Source: Saprolegnia diclina VS20
Lineage: Eukaryota; Oomycota; Saprolegniomycetes; Saprolegniales; Saprolegniaceae
NCBI RefSeq assembly: GCF_000281045.1
Contig: NW_008246086.1
Span: forward strand, 610,072 to 634,983
Reading direction: 5' to 3'
DNA: 24,912 nucleotides
In this document: piece by piece, positions 5,406-24,905 of the stretch
Position numbering within the stretch: position 1 is the stretch's first letter
Layout: each line of letters starts with the position of its first letter
Notes under the pieces: model-generated
Told to the model about the DNA's origin: nothing
Database searches by the model: none
Seen by the model: the letters and a program-made list of their open reading frames with translations, nothing else
Made by a program: the position numbers and the translations under genes

Positions 5406-8400
5406 ATGATGCCAACGCTCCTCCATGACCTCCTCCACTTCCTCGGGAACATGCTGCATGGAGTGGTAGACCACGTCGGTCGCTTGCTAGGCAACGCGCC
5501 CGCGACCCTGCTCGAGGACGACGCGGTCCTTCCTCCCCCGCTCGACCCACCGCCATCGTCGTCGCTCGACGCACTGCCATCGACCTCGCTCGACGCAGCG
5601 CCATCGTCTTCGCTTGACGCGACGCCATCGTCTTCGCTTGACGCGACGCCATCGGCCCCGCTCCGAGAAGACCTCGTCGCCACGATCGACCGACTCGCCT
5701 CGGACACGAGCACGACCGTGGCGAGCGCTGCGGAGCGGGCGCGTGCTGCGTATGGACCGACCCCACTCGTGTCTGGGCACCCTCCTCAGCCCCCTCCGAC
5801 CTCGTGGACGTGCACCTTTGCAGAGCCGATCGACGTCTGGGTCCACGACGTGGCGCGGCAGCTCATCGAGCACTGCAACATGGATCCTTTGCTCACGGCA
5901 TGCATCGATCTGGCGGCCGTCGACCCGGGTATCGCGCGGCAGTGTCTCATCGTCGGCCTCGCCGAGGTATTGCAGGCGACGCCTCAAGAAGCCACCGGCA
6001 TCCTCCACACCATCTTAAACGCACACGTGCGAAACGGGCAGGTCTTGGTCGAGTCGTTCCTCCGCGCGGCCCGCGTGTTGGACCCGGCGCAGCTCCTGCC
6101 GTGGCATCTTCTCATGGAGTACGCGCTGCAGTGCAACATGCCGTACTCGGTGCTCCAGTGCGTCGAGCGTGCGGGCGCAGGCGATAGTCAGCATTGGGCT
6201 ATGGCCGCCTTCAACGCGATCGGCGACACCGCATGCAAGGCCAACGCGTACTGGGTCACAGTGGCGTCGACACCGCCACTGCAACTGCAACTGAGTTACG
6301 CCAAGGCTCTGGCAGACTTGAGCCAATGGTCGCTGCTCGATCCGCCGAAAGCCACGAACGACTCCTTGGTCGCCCTCGAAGCGGGTGACTACACACGCGT
6401 GGCGTCATTGGCCAAGCTGCGCATCGTGCAAGACGGCATGCTCGAGCCAACGATCGCGGTGACCAAGGCGGTGCTGGACCAACAAGATCTCATCAAGATC
6501 GCAGACGTCAGCGCCAATCTTCAGGTCCCGATCATGTGCATCAAATGTAGATGGCTCACCCGCGCATGTACATGTAGATCCAAGGGGACGGGCTGGCGCT
6601 CGTCGAGCGTTGGAAAGAAGGGCACAAGCAGCATTGCGACGAGCCCCGCGCTCTCCTGCGGTGCCTCGCGGTCGAGCAGCGACTCCTGACCACCCTCAAA
6701 GCCTCTTTGCAGACTCGGGCGGAATGGTTTGTGGAGCGCGTCGCCGTCGCGCAGCGGGATGCTGCTCCGCACATCGTCGCCGGCGTTTTCGCCGAGCTCG
6801 AGACAACGCTGCAGCTGCTGCCCGGTGCCTCGGACGTGCGGCTGCTCACGAAGCTCGTGCAGAACGGCTTGGCCGAGGACGATCATCTCTCGACCGTCGA
6901 CTGGACGGCACAACCCGGCGCCGGCGGCTGGACAGCGTTCCAAGCCGACGCTAATATGTCGCTGTGGGACCTGGCGTGGAGCCAGCTCGAGAACCCGACC
7001 GACAAGCGCGCGGGCAAGGTCTATTTGGCACTCGCCAAGGCGTGGGACAATCAAGGAGCACCCGAACTGGTCGTGCGCGCGCTCGAGATGTATGCCAAGA
7101 GCCTCCGGTACAAACCCCAGATTGTGTATTGTGTACCGAGGACATGGTGTGCATAGGTGCACCGGGGCGTCCACCTTCGACTTTCTCGGGTTGTGATTTC
7201 AGCACCGCTGCGACAAGGACGTGGCCAGCGCCATGCGTCGGCTCCTTTTGGACACCGGCACCCGCGTGCCGACGGTGGCTTTGGTGCCGCACACGCACGC
7301 GATCGCGGCGCAGTTTCTGGCTGCGTTCAAGCGCAACGACAAGCCTTGCTGCCACCTGCTCGGCGACTTGCTTGTCCGCATGTGCGTCGACCACCCGTAC
7401 CACGTGGCGCACGTCATCGCGCAGCGGCTTTTTCGAAACTCTCGGGAACTCCAGAGTTTCACGCAGTGGCTCTTCGAGAACCCCCGCGACTTTGTCGGCC
7501 GGCGCATCCGCCAGCAGTCGGACCGCGCGGCTCGACTCTTTGACGCAGCGTGCAAGCTGGCGGCGAGGACGTCGGCGTGCTGGAGTTCGTCGCCAACGCC
7601 GAGCCGCTGGTGACCCATATCTGCGAGAGCCAGAGCATGCTTAACGACTGGTTCGATCGATGGGAGAGCGTGGACATCGATGCGCGCCTCAAGATGCTGG
7701 CCGATGGCCCCATCACGCTCCCGCAGTGGTTCCTGACAAAGTTCCCGGACCCGTATGCGTGGTACGACCGTTCTTTTGCGCATGCAACGACCAAGTTGTG
7801 GGGTGTTGTAGGTACCAAAGCCGCCTCCAGTACACGCGCACACTGGCGTCATCGTCCGTGCTTGGCGTGGTCATGGGTCTCGGTGACCGCCATGCCGGCA
7901 ACTTTCTCCTCAACACGATGAACGGTGGCGTTGTCTACATCGATTTCGGCATTGTCTTCGACCACAACTGTACGTCACGATGACATACATGTACCACGAT
8001 GCATGACGTGATATGCGTATAGTCGACGGCGCGACGGAGCACATTGAGGCCGTGCCAATTCGCCTCACGCGCAACCTCGTTGCCGCGCTTGGGCCGAGCG
8101 GCGCGGGCGGCTTCTTTGCCATGGCGTGCGCCGAGACGCTCGAGGTACACGCCTTGCATGAGGATGACAGCTGACTTTTGTGTGAGCGTAGGTTGTGCCA
8201 GCACCACGTGACGATGCAGCGCCTTCTCGCGGTGCGTCTTTTCGTTTGCAAAAGCTCATTTTACGAGCAGCGGGTGATGTAGAGCGACCCGGTCGTCGCG
8301 CCACAGAGCGTGCCATACACGGAGGCCCGCTTGAATACCATCATGCCGCTTCGCAACGTGTCCATCTCGATGACGATGATCGACGACATCATCGCGGCGG

Positions 8401-8456
8401 CCACAGACCCGCAGTCCCTGGCGGTCATGCCCTCGAACTGGGTTCCGTGGTTTTAG
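5406..8456 (+). CDS. ATM-like PI3K-related kinase, shortened and lacking the kinase N-lobe
   Basis: Exons inferred: 5406-6546, 6585-7123 (or to 7132), 7203-7761, 7812-7969, 8023-8144, 8202-8231 and 8283-8456. About 900 residues result, against roughly 3000 for ATM. After a Ser/Pro/Leu-Asp repeat region comes helical FAT-like sequence with a DHPYH motif typical of ATM. Next are GVLEF, KFPDP..W, the catalytic loop GLGDRHAGN, the activation motif YIDFG and VPIRLTRN. A FATC-like end, ATDP then WVPWF, closes the protein. The lobe that should lie between DHPYH and GVLEF, with the P-loop, catalytic Lys and the DLRQD region (about 170-200 residues), is absent. At about 7550-7560 the frame also shifts. 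Summed exons leave a remainder of 2, so no single frame runs through. This looks like a kinase-dead remnant, a pseudogene or an assembly deletion. DNA-PKcs is a less likely alternative. Confidence 0.78.
5550..5669 (+). repeat. 24-bp coding minisatellite, five units
   Basis: Five head-to-tail 24-base units begin at 5550, 5574, 5598, 5622 and 5646. The core is GCCATCGTCTTCGCTTGACG. Each unit encodes eight residues of the form (A/T/L)PSSSLDA; the last unit is diverged. Units three and four are almost identical, which suggests recent slippage or unequal exchange within the first exon of the ATM-like gene. Confidence 0.85.
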
Positions 8457-9229: not shown

Positions 9230-10170
9230 ATGGACTCCTGGGGTACGCACGCGCCTCCTGCGTAGACGACGATGGCCTCATGCGACCGTATGTAGATGAT
9301 GAAGAATTCGAAGTGCCCACGTACGCGACTTTGGCCATTGGCGGCGAAGCGGCGGCTAATGGACTCGTAGGTTGAACGACAAGAAGCCTGTCGTCGCCAA
9401 CTGGGACGACTCGGAAGAGGAGGAGGAAGAAGTCAAGCCCGTCGTCGCCGCCAAGCCGGCCGCGCCCACGGGTCCCCTCAAGCCCAAGCAGCTCAAGAAG
9501 ATGATGCTCAAGGAGCAGGAGGAGAAGCACAAGCTTGAAGTCGCGATCGCCAAGGCCCGCGCCGAGGAGGAGCGCCACATGACGGCCGACGAACTCAAGG
9601 CCAAGCAGCAGCGCTCGATCGAGGAAGCCGACTTTGAGAACACGCTCGACGCGTTTGGTTTGAGCACGTCGAACGCGGTCAAGACCAAGGTCGCGAAGGC
9701 CGGCGACCTCGAGACGGTCGTCTCGGACATGAAGCTTGTGACGCTCGCCGACCACGAGGACCTCGGGTCGCTTGTCGGCAAGCGCCTCGTCAACTCGGTA
9801 TGCCTCCATTCTTGTGGGGCTTGCCCCTCATCCCATCGCTGTCTAGAACGCCAAATACGTCGTCGAGTTTATGAAGACGCTCATCTCGCACGCGTCGACG
9901 AACCTCACGGCCAACGACATGAACGACCTTACGACCATCATCAACGTACGTCGACCTCGCTCGATTCTCTCGAGAGGCTCATGCCTGTGGGATGCTGCGT
10001 AGGTCATCAAGAACGAGAAGATCCAGGCCGCCAAGCCCAAGGGCAAGAAGAAGAAGGTCACGGGCAAGCAGGGCTACGCCAAGGTCGAGCGGGCGACGGG
10101 CGGCGCCGGCGCCGGTGCCAACGTGGAGGACTACGACTATGGCGATGACGATTTCGATGATTTTATGTAA
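9230..10170 (+). CDS. EIF3J: Translation initiation factor eIF3 subunit J
   Basis: Five exons: 9230-9242, 9296-9320, 9371-9797, 9847-9945 and 10003-10170. They sum to 732 bases, giving 243 residues in one unbroken frame. The protein starts MDSWDDEEFEVP and continues with an acidic WDDSEEEEEE stretch. A long Lys/Glu/Ala helix (about residues 50-95) follows, then the conserved middle, a KPKGKKKK basic patch and the acidic end DDDFDDFM. This matches eIF3j (yeast Hcr1), a loosely bound eIF3 subunit that sits in the 40S decoding centre and also helps subunit recycling. The two tiny first exons (13 and 25 bases) were found because splicing them restores the family's N-terminal motif. All four introns have local-type GTA...TAG ends. 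Confidence 0.92.
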
Positions 10171-14000: not shown

Positions 14001-14373
14001 ACCGTGTCCCTTGGGATCTTGCGGATTTTTACTCTCATCACGCGAATGATGCGCCGACGTCATCGACATTTTAATGCAGCGCGGTCGCGGATTGGCCGAA
14101 AGTGCCGCTCAGCTTCAACAGGCTGGATTGCGTCAAACAGTCCACGGATGCCGACGGCGAGTGTTTTTAGCCCGGGGGGCTTATACCGCCATATACAAAC
14201 ACCAAGTACACGCGAATCCACGGTGCATTTTTTTATTACGTGCAACGGGCAGCATAATAATAAAAAAGTATCTTTTTGGCGTGGGAACTTGCTACCAATT
14301 GGGCGAATAAAATGCGCGCGCTGATAAAAATAGCACCAAAACGAAAGCCGTCCACTTTTCCTTTTCGCCTCTG

Positions 14374-15333
14374 ATGCTCACGACGACGACCCCCGTGCTG
14401 ACGGCGCCCAAGCCCCTCGCGGTCGGCAAGAAGCCGCAGAACCCGACGGCCAAGTTTGTCATCGGCGCCGGCGTCGCCTGGTCGTATGAGCTCGCGCTCG
14501 GCCACTTCTTCGAGTTTATCAAGGTCATGAAGCAAACGCAAGGCCACAAGTCGTACCTCGAGCTCGGCCGCGAAATCACCAAGGCCAAGGGCATTTACGG
14601 CATCTGGGACGGCTTTTTTCCGTGGGGCACGGTGCAGGCCATCGCGAAGGGCTCCGTCTTCTCGTGGGGCCAAGCCTTTGCGCGCATGCAGATGGTGCCG
14701 CTGGTGAAGCAGGGCACGCTCAGCGACCGCACGGCCGAGATCATTTCCGGCGGCTTTGGCGGCGGTGTCCAAGGCATCTTTCTCTCGCCGACGCTGCTGT
14801 TGAAGACGCGCGTCATGACGGACCCGGTGTTCCGCAACAAGATGACGGGCTGGGAAACGTGCAAGAAATCGGGCCAGGTCGGCATGAACGTCATTCGCCA
14901 CGAAGGCATTTCGGCGCTCATGAAGGGCAGCATCGTCTTCTCGCTCAAGCGCGTGGCCGACTGGTCGACGCGGTATGCGTTCTGCGTCCTCACGGAAGAA
15001 GCGCTCTTCAAGGGGGACGACCCGAAGAAGAAGCTCACAGTCACCGAAGAGCTCGCTTCGTCGCTCATTGGTGGTACCCTCTCATGCATTGCGACGCTTC
15101 CGGTCGACGTCATGGTCGCCCAGATCCAACAGGCGTCCAAGGCCGGCGCCAACGTCGGCATCATCTCGACCTTCAAGGACGAGTACGCCAAGGGCGGCAT
15201 GAAGCGCCTCGTCGGCTTCTCGATGGCCGGCTTTATCCCGCGCTGCTTGCACTGCGCGTTCACGACCATGGTCATGAAGACCGGCTGCTCGGTCGTCTAC
15301 GACATGTACGAGCAGTACACGGACGCCAACTAA
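14374..15333 (+). CDS. Mitochondrial carrier family (SLC25-like) protein, divergent
   Basis: A single-exon gene of 319 residues, ATG at 14374 and TAA at 15331-15333. Three repeats of about 100 residues are visible. Repeat three has the clearest signature, LPVDVMVAQIQQ. Repeat two has SPTLLLKTRVMTD, where the Pro-x-x-x-x-Lys-x-Arg pattern survives. Repeat one (YELALGHFFEFIKVMKQTQ) has lost the signature Pro. Each repeat continues with a Gly-containing second helix, such as GIYGIWDGFFPWG. The family exchanges metabolites, nucleotides or cofactors across the inner mitochondrial membrane. The weakened signatures mean the substrate cannot be guessed. It is one of the few genes in the window without introns. 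An AT-rich flank with CCAATTGG lies about 80 bases upstream. Confidence 0.8.
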   Translation: MLTTTTPVLTAPKPLAVGKKPQNPTAKFVIGAGVAWSYELALGHFFEFIKVMKQTQGHKSYLELGREITKAKGIYGIWDGFFPWGTVQAIAKGSVFSWGQAFARMQMVPLVKQGTLSDRTAEIISGGFGGGVQGIFLSPTLLLKTRVMTDPVFRNKMTGWETCKKSGQVGMNVIRHEGISALMKGSIVFSLKRVADWSTRYAFCVLTEEALFKGDDPKKKLTVTEELASSLIGGTLSCIATLPVDVMVAQIQQASKAGANVGIISTFKDEYAKGGMKRLVGFSMAGFIPRCLHCAFTTMVMKTGCSVVYDMYEQYTDAN

Positions 15334-16368: not shown

Positions 16369-17431
16369 CTACTCGCGGTCCGCGACGCGCCGGAGGTTGA
16401 TGTTGACTCTGGCGTGCGCGATGTAATCTGCGAAAGCGTCGACTTCGGCTGGGATGTGCGTGTGCTTCAGTGCTTGGGTGCACGCCGCAAAGTCGTCGGG
16501 AAGCTGGTCGGTGACGAGCGGGACGCCATGGAAGCATCGACGAGCTTCGCCACCCATGACAAGGATATCACCTACTTACGCATGAGCTAAATTGTGTCGG
16601 ACGCGTCGGTGTACCGCTGCGCAGCCAGAGCGCTGTCGGCGTCGTCGCACGCGTCAAGCCGCCTTGCAAGTACACACACTGCGTGCCGAGGCTCAGCGAC
16701 ACGATTGGGTTGACCATGTCGAACTCGGCGTTGTCCAAGTGGCCGCCCATGCAGGTCCCGGCCGGGTAAAAATTGACGATGCCCGACTCGACGTCCTTCC
16801 CGTTAACGTAGCTTGTCATCGCGTACACCTCCTTCACGAGCTGCTTGAGCTCCTCTGGCAGCGGAGGAATGTCGGGGTCGGCCACGTACTCGCGCGCTGT
16901 CCAGTCGTAATGGGCGCCAATGTTGGCCCAGCGCAAGGCGTGGAACGCCTTCCACGCTGGCCGCCCATGCGTCGTCGCGTCTTCATGCCATGCGTCTTCC
17001 CAGAGCCTCGTCGTCGCAGCTCGATCGCCCGTGAGGTTGGTCACATTGTTATAGGGCTGTTGCGAGTGAGCTCGTACGGCGCGGAAGGCCCACTCGACTT
17101 GGGTCGTGATGGGCATGGCACCAGTAAGCACCATCATGCCGCTGAGCCCTTCGATCTCGTAAATGTAGGCATCGCGAGGGCTAAGGATGGTGTAGTCGAA
17201 AGCGAGCGCCTCGGAGGACGGCGCGCGGCCACGGAGGCGAGCCATATTGGCAGCCGAGTTGGCGTCCTTGGCATGGACGTCGATGACGCCCGAGAAGTCG
17301 ACGCGGTCGGTCTGCCGATGGGCATCATGGCGACGCTGGCGTGCGTTCTTGTGGTCGCTACTCCGATGGCGGTATTGCTTCTCGAGCGGCCGGAAGCGGT
17401 CGACGACGTCGCCCGTGCTTGCTGCCCGCAT
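16369..17431 (-). CDS. ALKBH1: ALKBH1-type Fe(II)/2-oxoglutarate dioxygenase
   Basis: Two exons, 17431-16615 and 16571-16369, joined by a 43-base intron to give 339 residues. ATG 17431 is chosen because the frame upstream has no other ATG. The N-terminus has an FRPLEKQYR stretch and FSGVIDVHA, matching ALKBH1. Further on are LRWANIGAHYDW, then GIVNFYPAG and the iron ligands H231-x-D233 in GGHLDNAEFD. The third iron ligand H287 is in CFHGVP, and the 2-oxoglutarate arginines R327 and R333 are in RVNINLRRV. All catalytic residues are therefore present. ALKBH1 acts on tRNA (m1A, and the wobble C34 pathway in mitochondria) and on methylated DNA in some reports; substrate here is inferred only. The gene is head-to-head with the coiled-coil gene. 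Confidence 0.94.
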
Positions 17432-17583
17432 TATATTCGGCACGACATGTTATATTCGGCAGAAGTGCTGGTGGCAACTGCCTTCAATAACGGATACTAT
17501 ACGAACTTATCCGGTCAGAGGCAGCCAAGATCGCATTTCGGGAATCGCGCGCGAAGGAAGAAGCGGCCGAGAGGAAGCGCGGG
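17432..17583. promoter_or_regulatory. Divergent promoter between ALKBH1 and the coiled-coil gene
   Basis: Only 152 bases separate the two start codons. TTATATTCGGCA-like sequence occurs twice (about 17431-17442 and 17450-17461). From 17491 on, the plus strand is open in frame with the coiled-coil gene (31 codons, no ATG, TAA at 17488-17490) and reads as protein-like, so part of this interval may be coding. Confidence 0.4.
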
Positions 17584-20134: not shown

Positions 20135-23100
20135 ATGGTCCGTCGGAAGCAAGCGCGGCCAAGGGGCCCGAGACATGGAGACGACGACGCGCCCGCGAAA
20201 GCCTTGTCGTATGCTGGCTGGCCGCGCGCTGCGAAGAAGCGCCGCCTGGCGACGATGCCCATCCGCGTCGACGTGCCGATGCACTCGGCACCGAGCGACC
20301 TCTGCATCCATGTTGCAGTGCCACCGAGCAGCAATGTCCCGGGCCGCGACGCAACAGCGGACCACAGCGCTACGTATCGCCTCAGCCTCGTGCAAAGTGA
20401 TGCGCGAAACGGCGTGTACGACACGGTGTGTCTTGGCGATGGCGAGCTGGTCGAGACAACGGCCGTGGGCCTCTCGCCGCCGATCCTCACGGCGCTTGCC
20501 CACGTCGCAGCCGCCAACTACGTTTCGGTCGTCGTTTCGATGCACCCTACAGTGCTGCACATGTACGTGCACATGGACGCCTACGCGACGCGCAAGCAGG
20601 CGGTGATGGTTCAGCACATGCGTCGCTTCATGGCCTGGCTCCTCCTCGCATCGAGAGACGAATGGTCGTACCCATACCTCTCCGAGCTCGAGGCCATGAC
20701 GACATTCGCCGCTCCGCCGCTGATACACCCGTCGCAGCTACTCGAGCATATCGTGCCATGCCCGTTCTCGGCGGCGGGCGACGCCTATGTCCCGAGTCCG
20801 TATCTCCTTCCGACGCTGCGCCGATACCAGCGCGCCGCCGTCGCATGGATGCTGGAGCGCGAAGCTGGCGCCGATCCCAATGTACGCACTCCATTTACTC
20901 GTCTCGTAGTCCTCATGGCGTCTAGGGTGCGCTTGCTACGTTGCAGACGACGTATGCCACGCACCTCGGGACCTCGATGGCGTACGACCCCTTCGCAGCC
21001 GCGTTCGTCACGCCGGGCACAGCACCGACTACCTTCGTGCACGGCGGCGTCCTTGCCGATGAAATGGGCTTGGGCAAGACGCTGCAAGTGCTCGCGTGCA
21101 TCTTGTCGCACCCGTGCTTGATGCCACTGACCGTGTTGGCGGCGGCGCCACCACGCGCGTGGCCGAGTAATGACGTGAGCTGCGTGTGCAACTCGAGCGC
21201 GATGCACAGCGCGGGATTTGTCCGCTGCACATTGTGTGGCATTCTCCAGCACCGCATCTGCACTGGCGCGGACGCTGACGAGACGTTCCACTGCGAAGCG
21301 TGCTTGCGCGTCGCCCAGCCGCTCTGGCACACCAAGACGACTCTGATCGTGTCGCCCCAGTCGATCCACAAGCAGTGGGAGGCCGAGGTGCTCCGGCACA
21401 CGACGCCTGGCGCCGTCACCATCTACGTACGCTTGCTCTGTGGATACGAGGTGTGATCGAATACGGTGTCTAGTGCTATAGCGGCATCAAGGCCATGCGG
21501 GCGCGTCTTCGTGGACCGTCGTCCGAGTGGCAGTACTGCCGGGCACCGGTCCTCGCTGCGTTTGACCTTGTCTTGGCCACGTACCATACTCCTGACGCTA
21601 TCATGCACCGACACGACTGTCGACATGTAGGTACGAAGCGCTGCGCGATGACGTGCACTACATTCGGAACGCCGACGCCCGACGTTTGCGCCAGGCCAAG
21701 CACTACCGCATCGCGGCGAGTCCGCTCACGCATCTCTGCTTTTGGCGCGTCTGCCTCGACGAAGCACAGCTCGTCGAGAGCCAGCAAGTATCCATCGCTC
21801 TACTATCTGAGATCTGACATGGGTTCTAAATCGGACGTAGACGCAAGCGGCCGTGATGGCGTCGCATCTCTCAATGCAGCACCGGTGGTGGGTCACCGGC
21901 ACGCCCTTTGGCAAGAGCATGGCCGACGTGCACGCGACGTTTGCCTTTCTGCGCGTCCCGCCTTTGGACGCCAAGGAGATTTGGCGCCAGCTGACGCCGC
22001 ATGACCGCCTCGTGAACGCGCTCCAGGCGCTCGTTTGGCGCAACCGCAAGTGCAATGTCGACGATCAGATCGTATTGCCGCCGCAGACGACGCGATTCCA
22101 CTGGCTGGAGCTCTCGAGCATCGAGGCGCACTTCTACGAGACACAGCACGCCGCATGCACCCAGTACGCCCCTACCGCACCGACATTCTGTCCAATGTCA
22201 AGACGTAGGAGCTACGCGGTCGGCGACGATGTGACACCCGGTATGCTCCAGACCCTCTTGCGCTTGCGCCAAGCCTGCTGCCACCCGCAACTCGGCGCGC
22301 ACGGCATCCGCATGCTCCAGTCGGGCGGGCGTGTGCTCACCATGGACGAGATTCTGGACGAAATGCTCCTTTACGTACGCTAAGCTATTGGGGCTAAGTG
22401 TCTTGATGGCATGTACACTATTAGGCAACGCGGGCTTGCGAAGACGCGCAGCGGCTCTGGATCGCTGCGACCAACGGCCTCGCCGGCATCGACGCCATTG
22501 AGCACGACGCGGGTGCCGCCATTGCGCGCTACTGCGACGCGATAGCTCTTGTGCAAATCCACTGGAAGGACTTTCGGGCGGACGTGCTGCCGCGACTGCA
22601 CATGGCCGTCAACCTCGAGCGACGGCTCGTCGATTTGGTGCCTGCAGCATCGCCGACTGCCGATGCGTCCGTGTCTCCGTGCATCAACGCCAAGGACGAG
22701 CACGGCCTTCCTTCGCTTGCTTCGCTGCAGGCGTGCATGCGCCCAGAGCGGCGCGAAGACGATGGGGTGCTGGCGTGTCTTGAGGCGAATCCGTCAGTCG
22801 TGTCTGCAACAGCAACGGCGCTGGCTGCGTCGGCACGCCAACTGGAGCACTACTACTTGAGCACAGCGACGGCGCAGCACGACGCTGCCCAGCACAAGTA
22901 CATGCAGGCACATGGCAACGTCGACGCGCGTCGCTTCTCGGCGGCACCGCTGGCGACCATTTCAAACGCGCGACTGGACCGGCTTTGCGCCTCGTGGCTG
23001 GGGCGTTCGGACGGCTACCAACGATTTGCGCGCAAGTTTACGTCGACCGCCGGGCTCGTCATTGTCGCGTCGTCGGCGCTCGAAGACTTTGCGAGACGCC

Positions 23101-24905
23101 GTACTGAGATGCACGACGCGCTGGTCCACCTCAGTGCCGCCACGCCATCCCCACGTGACGTGGCACGCTCCGGTGAGCACACTTGTGCAAAAGATGCAAA
23201 GGACGAACGCTCGACAATGTAGGCAACTGCCAACGCTGTCGGCAAGACCGGTACGGCCCCGTGTGCGACCACTGCAAACTGCAGCCGTCGCTCGATTCGC
23301 TGCAGGCAACGCTCGTAGACGACGGCGACATGGCCGTGCTCTTGCAGGTGCTCGACGAGATGCAGCATCATGACAACAGCCTGCTCTCTGCTGTCCGCAA
23401 GGAAGTGGCGTGCGCCGCCAAGCTCTGGCAAGCGCAGCATGCGCGGCTTGGCGGTCTCGACGAACTCGCCATGGCCAAGACCACCATGACACTGTCGACC
23501 AACGCCAACCACGGGACGGTATCCACACCGTCCGCTGTGAACTTTCATTCACATCATGGCACTCTGTAGGCGATCAACGAGCTCCACGCGTACGAGCTGC
23601 CCGGAAGGCGGGTGACGCTCGATGTGGAGCGCGCCGACGCCCACGCGACGCTACGTACTGCGCTCAGTCAGCTCCGGTACCTTCGACACCTGCAACAGCA
23701 CCGCGTGACGTCGTCCTCGCGCCGCGACGACTGCGTCGTGTGCCACGAGGAGCTTCCGATCGAGCACGCCATGTGGTCGTGTGCTCACGTCTTGTGTCGT
23801 TCGTGCACGCAAGCGATGATGCGGCCGGCGCGACGCGCGCTCTGTCCGACCTGCCGCTGCCCCAGCACCGCTGCGTCGATTCAACTGGTTCGAGACGAGC
23901 CGCTGCGCATCGGTACGCGATTCTCCAACCTCAAAACGGTTTTGAGACTGGCGTTTGAGATTGAATGGGGACGTATAGGACCCGAGTGCGGTACCAAGGT
24001 CGACAGCATCGTCCGCTGCATCCGTAGTCTGGGCGACGTGCGCGTACTTCTCTTTTCCCAGTGGCCGTCCATGCTGCGCATTCTCTCGACAGCCTTGCAG
24101 GAGGCCGGCGTCCACTGCCTTTACCCCGAGACTAAGAAGGACTTTGAGAAGGAACTGCAAGCGTTCAAGGCATCGACGACGTCGGCGTGTGTGCTCGCAT
24201 TGCCTTTTCGACACGGCGCCAACGGCCTCAACCTCGTCGAGGCGTCGCACGTCGTCTTGGTCGAGCCGCTTCTGAACGGGTCGGTGGAGCGGCAGGCCAT
24301 TAACCGCGTCCATCGTCTCGGGCAGGAAAAGCCGACAACTGTTCACCGCTTCATTGTGCAGCACTCGATTGAGGAAGGGATTTTGGCGCTGCAGGCCCGC
24401 GACGCCAACACGCCGCTGCACGCAACCGAGGTGGTCTCGGCAACCGACTGGCGCCTCCTTCTACAGCAGGTGAGTCGCAATCGATGGATATTTTGATCCT
24501 CATTTGGTCGTAGGAGCATGCCGAGATGAACGACGGATTCTGGTCGGCGCCGATGGGTGGTCCGACGCGCCAGCAAGTCAAGGACCGCTTGGAACGCGCG
24601 AGATCGTTTGAGCTGCGGGCCACCGACGCCCGCCTCGTCGACGAGCCAACGCTCGTTGTCTGTGGCGTATCGGTCAACGTGCACGTCGCTGCGCAGCTGC
24701 TACGAGGTACGCCACGTGTCAGCATGGTCGTCAAGCATCTCTTGGCGGTGTAGACTGCAGCGCTGTCGATGAAGACGATGCTGCGTTGCTTGCGGTGCTC
24801 AAACAGCGTCTACGCGTCAAGCTACATGCGCTGGGCTTCCCAACACCCGAGGTTGTATCGTCAAATGCTGTCCCCGCCCAAAACGCCGGGCCGGATCGCA
24901 CTTAG
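20135..24905 (+). CDS. SHPRH: SHPRH-type SNF2 helicase with PHD and RING domains (E3 ubiquitin ligase)
   Basis: Ten exons: 20135-20881, 20926-21426, 21474-21580, 21631-21787, 21841-22374, 22425-23172, 23223-23518, 23570-24469, 24514-24706 and 24754-24905. They sum to 4335 bases, giving 1444 residues in one frame. Order: LPTLRRYQRAAVAWML (about 226-241), Walker A DEMGLGKT (about 293-300), and an inserted PHD finger (C4HC3, about 335-375). Then come the DEAQ box (about 493), VTGTP, a CxxC...CxxC knuckle (about 934-949) and a C3HC4 RING (about 1086-1127). Motif V GANGLNLVEA and motif VI QAINRVHRLGQ (about 1272-1282) follow. This split-helicase order is specific to SHPRH/Rad5-like proteins. SHPRH polyubiquitinates PCNA in postreplication repair. 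Human SHPRH is longer and has a linker-histone (H15) domain that I do not see here. All catalytic motifs are intact. Confidence 0.95.

What the first reader, a model, noticed from the sequence alone, without database searches (positions are those of the whole stretch)
7203..7970. ATM-like kinase gene with the whole ATP-binding N-lobe missing
Seen: the order DHPYH ... GVLEF ... KFPDP ... GLGDRHAGN ... YIDFG ... FATC-like end is that of ATM. However, only about 40 residues separate the end of the DHPYH segment from GVLEF, and the reading frame shifts at about 7550-7560. Known: in ATM roughly 200 residues with the P-loop, catalytic Lys and DLRQD lie there. The product could not bind ATP normally, yet its catalytic loop, DFG-type motif and C-terminus remain well conserved. 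It is either a regulatory pseudokinase, a young pseudogene, or an assembly collapse. The whole protein is also only about 900 residues.
Basis: partly seen in the sequence, partly recalled or inferred. Interest (0 to 1): 0.75.

Follow-up and report, generated by a model that had tools for sequence, protein, structure and literature searches.

The report
Broken extra ATM-like kinase gene
This is a recently broken extra copy of a DNA-damage-type kinase gene in a water mould: it really lacks the ATP-binding part, but the same gene in a sister species still has that part, so it looks like an ordinary decaying gene and not a new kind of kinase.

Summary
In detail: at window 7560-7573 the segment that should encode the kinase N-lobe is absent and the frame shifts, while the catalytic loop, DFG-type motif and FATC-like end remain. 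The genome is Saprolegnia diclina VS20: the annotated protein SDRG_06981 matches at 100%, is 562 aa, and ends at an in-frame stop at 7194-7196. The window copy carries an upstream stop, a net loss of about 520 bp with a frameshift, and perhaps a small frame disruption near 8192-8201. The best reading is a young pseudogene of a fast-evolving Saprolegnia PIKK pair on the ATM side of the tree, outside the ATM clade. Lineage-specific change is not in excess after the stop, so inactivation is recent. Assembly error at the deletion, or splicing that skips the lesions, cannot be excluded without reads. Ordinary; low interest.

The parts
5406..6524 (+). Exon 1 of the PIKK-like pseudogene (FAT-region N part)
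   Evidence: Open frame; in annotated SDRG_06981; the part upstream of the stop has 73.4% BLASTP identity (320/436) to SPRG_14470
5539..5654 (+). 24-bp tandem repeat, 4.8 copies, coding for SLDATPSS-type repeats in exon 1
   Evidence: TRF; absent from the S. parasitica protein in the alignment
6525..6577 (.). Intron 1 (53 nt, GT-AG), same place as in the paralogue
6578..7107 (+). Exon 2 (FAT region)
   Evidence: agrees with annotated SDRG_06981
7108..7156 (.). Intron 2 (49 nt), same place as in the paralogue
   Evidence: agrees with SDRG_06981
7157..7559 (+). Exon 3, end of FAT region, up to ...LFDAACKL; contains the stop and DHPYH (7389-7403)
   Evidence: 89 of 117 aligned residues after the stop identical to SPRG_14470
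7194..7196 (+). In-frame stop codon; end of annotated SDRG_06981; the orthologue and paralogue have a residue there
7560..7573 (+). Junction: 14 nt where the S. parasitica orthologue encodes 145 residues with the N-lobe; the frame changes here
7550..7761 (+). Exon with VQAGGEDVGVLEF...FPDPYAW (start of C-lobe); its first bases overlap the end of exon 3 in another frame
7762..7811 (.). Intron (50 nt); same place as in the paralogue (48 nt)
7812..7969 (+). Exon with catalytic loop GLGDRHAGN (7876-7902) and IDFG (7939-7950)
   Evidence: PF00454 3.3e-14 for the piece 7645-7983
7970..8022 (.). Intron (53 nt); same place as in the paralogue (51 nt)
8023..8144 (+). Exon, C-lobe VPIRLTRNLVAALGPSG...CAETLE
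8145..8191. Intron (47 nt if it ends here, 57 nt if it ends at 8201 as in the script)
8192..8201 (+). Small frame disruption compared with the paralogue DNA and the S. parasitica protein, if the acceptor ending at 8191 is used; an acceptor ending at 8201 would avoid it
   Evidence: by eye
8202..8231 (+). Short exon HHVTMQRLLA
8232..8282 (.). Intron (51 nt)
8283..8455 (+). Last exon with FATC-like C-terminus
   Evidence: PF02260 23.5 bits at 8379-8453, below the 25.3 cut-off

Best explanation
A young pseudogene in S. diclina VS20 of a fast-evolving PIKK paralogue (HEAT-poor FAT-kinase-FATC form) seen here only in Saprolegnia. In the line to VS20 it acquired an in-frame stop in the FAT region, lost about 520 bp carrying the kinase N-lobe, and perhaps gained a further small frame disruption. 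What remains as an open frame is the 562-aa FAT-region fragment annotated as SDRG_06981, without a kinase part. Shown: the lesions in this assembly, the orthologue with the N-lobe, and no excess of lineage-specific change after the stop. Inferred: that the lesions are real in the organism, that no splice form skips them, that the gene is functionless, and the order of events.
For: SPRG_14470 has 145 residues between AACKL and GVLEF, with TDGKTYKQVVK and a following D, where the window has 14 nt. In-frame stop at 7194-7196, where the public 562-aa model also ends. Possible small frame disruption near 8192-8201. Four introns share their place with the paralogue, and frames are otherwise open, as in recent decay. 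Tree: window with SPRG_14470 at 97/93, these with the paralogues at 100/100. The S. parasitica copy has itself lost the catalytic-loop His (LGDRN), which suggests weak constraint. The missing segment was found in the held genome only at the paralogue, in three pieces of 56%, 62% and 42% identity.
Against: Residues identical to the orthologue: 350/455 before the stop (76.9%), 89/117 between stop and deletion (76.1%), 164/231 after the deletion (71.0%); S. diclina-specific changes are not in excess after the stop (18 vs 12; before 26 vs 15; Fisher p 0.81), so there is no sign of long neutral decay. The catalytic residues of the C-lobe are intact in the window. GT-AG pairs of 40-130 nt that would keep the frame exist: 8 past the stop, 1 more of a second kind, and 9 past the junction. 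The third disruption depends on the choice of splice acceptor. No reads or transcripts were available.
Confidence: 0.8

Rival explanations
1. Assembly or consensus error: the organism has an intact gene, and about 520 bp were dropped in assembly.
For: Single assembly; no excess of lineage-specific change after the stop. The held assembly may be incomplete: the ATM-like SDRG_14925 matched none of the fetched loci at high identity, though not every kinase locus was fetched.
Against: The stop is a second lesion, 364 nt away, that a dropped stretch does not explain, and a third is possible. No N in the window and no tandem array at the junction (dispersed repeats were not searched). The segment was found in the held genome only at the paralogue.
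Confidence: 0.12
2. A regulatory pseudokinase: splicing skips the stop and the junction, and an N-lobe-less FAT-C-lobe-FATC protein is made and used.
For: Open frames and conserved C-lobe residues after the stop; frame-keeping GT-AG pairs exist.
Against: Needs two or three non-standard splice choices, while the ordinary introns (47-57 nt) sit where the paralogue has its own. The orthologue keeps the N-lobe. The public model stops at 562 aa.
Confidence: 0.05
3. The 562-aa FAT-region fragment is itself a functional truncated protein.
For: Open frame, annotated as SDRG_06981; 73.4% BLASTP identity to the orthologue; an in-frame tandem repeat is tolerated; identity is lower after the deletion (71.0%) than before the stop (76.9%), a difference I did not test.
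Against: No Pfam domain found in it; identity before the stop is almost the same as between stop and deletion (76.9% vs 76.1%).
Confidence: 0.06

Closest known systems
SPRG_14470, S. parasitica CBS 223.65 (orthologue)
   Same: HEAT-poor form with the same start; about 73% identity; FAT part, C-lobe and FATC-like end
   Different: Has the N-lobe segment and no stop; its catalytic loop reads LGDRN; lacks the SLDATPSS repeat insertion
SDRG_06880, S. diclina VS20 (paralogue on the same contig)
   Same: Four shared intron places; 43.6% (151/346, FAT part) and 51.5% (124/241, C-lobe) identity
   Different: 2112 aa with a long N-terminal region, an intact frame, and an N-lobe with VLPD at the place of a DLRxD-type motif
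ATM/Tel1
   Same: The pair joins the ATM side of the tree (89/85); the best hit outside the pair is SDRG_14925, which groups with ATM
   Different: Lies outside the ATM clade (83/93) on a branch of 2.05; S. diclina has SDRG_14925 besides
ATR/Mec1
   Same: Best PDB sequence hits of the window and paralogue C-lobes are Mec1 and ATR
   Different: ATR forms its own clade (100/99) without the pair; the UME-bearing ATR is on contig C18

Membership tests
PIKK (active kinase) | FAT region followed by kinase domain and FATC | tested here: inconclusive
   FAT region not recognised by Pfam and not among the 9 FAT matches in the genome, but aligns with paralogue and orthologue; C-lobe PF00454 3.3e-14; FATC 23.5 bits, below cut-off
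PIKK (active kinase) | N-lobe with nucleotide-binding Lys and DLRxD-type Asp | tested here: not met
   14 nt at the place where SPRG_14470 has 145 residues
PIKK (active kinase) | Catalytic loop DRHxxN and DFG-type motif | tested here: met
   GLGDRHAGN and IDFG at 7876-7950, but downstream of the stop and the frame break
ATM | Branches within the ATM clade | tested here: not met
   Next to the ATM clade, which excludes it at 83/93; long branch, so the place is unsure
ATM | TAN domain and full HEAT solenoid | tested here: inconclusive
   No Pfam match in the pieces 5406-7613, but SDRG_14925 also shows no TAN match, so the test is uninformative here; the gene begins at 5406, after a WD40-type gene
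ATR | Branches within the ATR clade; UME domain | tested here: not met
   ATR clade 100/99 without it; none of the 4 UME matches in the genome lies on C19
Pseudogene | Several disabling lesions compared with an intact orthologue | tested here: met
   Stop and N-lobe deletion with frameshift; a third, small disruption depends on the splice acceptor
Pseudogene | Relaxed constraint after inactivation | tested here: not met
   No excess of S. diclina-specific change after the stop, Fisher p 0.81; expected if very young
Pseudogene | No functional transcript or product | not testable with these tools
   No RNA or protein data at hand

The most novel reading that the evidence does not exclude
A Saprolegnia-specific PIKK offshoot is turning into a kinase-dead scaffold: S. 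parasitica has lost the catalytic-loop His, and S. diclina has lost the N-lobe and makes, through alternative splicing or as a FAT-only fragment, a non-catalytic partner of the long paralogue on the same contig.
Probability: 0.06. Interest if true: 0.5.

Novelty: new member of a known kind. Interest (0 to 1): 0.17.

Why it matters
It settles a claim of an N-lobe-less PIKK: the missing lobe is most likely a recent loss in one genome, not a viable kinase design. It also shows a fast-evolving extra PIKK pair in Saprolegnia, beside ATM- and ATR-grouping proteins and kinases that I take for SMG1 and two TORs (labels from recalled motifs), which is easily mistaken for ATM in annotation.

Tried and rejected
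A second frameshift near 7800 was first suspected from a 5-nt difference to the paralogue and withdrawn: it is an intron of 50 nt here and 48 nt in the paralogue.

The gene was first taken for ATR because of PDB hits; the tree puts the pair on the ATM side. The tree has 22 rows: 18 proteins that I picked from the search results, the window piece (44% of columns filled), and three own-genome kinases. It is not a full sample of the 228 hits, of which 120 were listed. Several group labels are mine and come from Pfam domains, hit order or recalled motifs, not from the source: at least P0006, P0007, P0008, P0011, P0022 and P0025 as ATM or Tel1, P0010 and the C18 gene as ATR. TOR and SMG1 labels for C60, C78 and C49 are from recalled motifs. 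The kinases on C120 and C82 were not identified.

AlphaFold of SPRG_14470 with 8 sequences gave mean pLDDT 49 and was not used; no fold search was run. Pfam did not recognise the FAT part. The search with the window protein found 3 proteins with E up to 0.001 among 7987 scored; a profile of the two S. parasitica proteins found 2 among 7992 scored. Both searches scored only the candidates sharing most words, and only within a length range.

Papers: PMC3681718 seen as listing, start of abstract and passages; PMC3019232 as listing, passages and section 20. What I saw of them does not mention these genes. The four locus tags gave 0 papers. The other papers were seen as listings only.

Where SDRG_14925 lies in the held assembly was not settled: the search did not complete in six tries, and the fetched loci do not match it at high identity.

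Full report
What is there. The window lies on contig C19 of a held genome of 54,150,662 bases in 169 contigs. The gene spans 5406-8455 on the + strand. Splicing six introns of 47-57 nt (the one at 8145 ends at 8191 or 8201) gives a FAT-region part, a kinase C-lobe and a FATC-like end. The protein search named the organism: SDRG_06981 of Saprolegnia diclina VS20, 562 aa, 100% identical, on a record of 748,253 bases. That public model ends at the in-frame stop found here at 7194-7196.

The missing lobe. The exon that ends in ...LFDAACKL (7559) is followed after 14 nt by GVLEF (7574) in another frame. The S. parasitica orthologue SPRG_14470 (962 aa) has 145 residues between the same landmarks, including TDGKTYKQVVK and a following Asp; in an alignment of 8 sequences G682, K690 and D697 of that protein are invariant. 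Its PF00454 match runs from profile position 24 to 229 of 241. Adding the two introns that the paralogue has in this stretch (53 and 46 nt), the net loss is about 520 bp; the S. parasitica DNA was not seen, so the intron part is inferred. A search of the held genome with the S. parasitica segment found only the paralogue, in three pieces of 56%, 62% and 42% identity.

Other lesions. The stop at 7194-7196 stands where the orthologue and the paralogue have a residue. Near 8192-8201 the frame is disrupted compared with the paralogue DNA and the S. parasitica protein, if the acceptor ending at 8191 is used; an acceptor 10 nt further on avoids it, so this third lesion is less sure. The apparent break near 7800 is an intron.

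Age. Aligned residues identical to SPRG_14470: 350 of 455 before the stop, 89 of 117 between stop and deletion, 164 of 231 after it. At sites where both outgroup rows agree (270, 41 and 170), S. diclina-specific changes number 26, 2 and 16, and S. parasitica-specific changes 15, 0 and 12; before versus after the stop, Fisher p = 0.81. There is thus no sign of long decay: the lesions are young, or constraint is weak in both species. The lower identity after the deletion (71.0%) was not tested. The S. parasitica protein has LGDRN in place of the GLGDRH-type catalytic loop, which favours weak constraint.

Family. The window piece pairs with SPRG_14470 (97/93) and both with the paralogues SDRG_06880 and SPRG_15598 (100/100). 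This group sits on a branch of 2.05 changes per column, with the ATM clade (89/85) but outside it (83/93), away from ATR (100/99). Single-sequence hits pointed to Mec1/ATR instead, so the placement is not firm. S. diclina has a protein that groups with ATM, SDRG_14925, and a UME-bearing ATR on C18. PF02260 matches 8 places in the held genome at E up to 1, 7 of them over the cut-off; the window's is the eighth. Among the 120 listed of 228 hits, full-length close relatives of the pair were seen only in Saprolegnia, and short forms only in the two Saprolegnia species.

Verdict. A young pseudogene of a Saprolegnia PIKK offshoot is best supported. Assembly error at the deletion, a splice form that skips the lesions (frame-keeping GT-AG pairs exist: 8 and 1 past the stop, 9 past the junction), and a functional FAT-only fragment remain possible and need reads, RNA and further isolates. 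Kinome work on Phytophthora infestans, P. ramorum and H. arabidopsidis reports four PIKKs each, two of them TOR-like, plus two PIKK-like proteins that lack FAT or FATC (PMC3019232, section 20), so incomplete PIKK-like genes in oomycetes are not new.

Noticed in passing
L037 (G000:C19:230000-239500): Paralogue SDRG_06880 (2112 aa) lies about 380 kb away on the same contig; its N-lobe has VLPD at the place of a DLRxD-type motif, so its activity is uncertain.
   Followed up: partly
window 5539-5654: 24-bp tandem repeat inside exon 1 coding for SLDATPSS-type repeats, absent from the S. parasitica protein.
   Followed up: partly
window 20926-24496: Pieces of a SNF2 helicase with a RING finger and Helicase_C on the + strand, a Rad5-type order (that name is recalled).
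   Followed up: no
window 16568-17449: 2OG-Fe(II) oxygenase (PF13532; the name AlkB-type is recalled) on the - strand.
   Followed up: no
window 9360-9848 and 14311-15333: eIF3 subunit (PF08597) and a mitochondrial carrier gene (PF00153), both on the + strand.
   Followed up: no
P0001 (SPRG_14470), residues 821-828: Catalytic loop reads LGDRNAAN: the conserved His is Asn in the S. parasitica orthologue.
   Followed up: partly
P0005 and P0003 (SPRG_15599, SPRG_15598): The S. parasitica counterpart of the paralogue appears split into two public gene models, both on a record of 40,633 bases.
   Followed up: no
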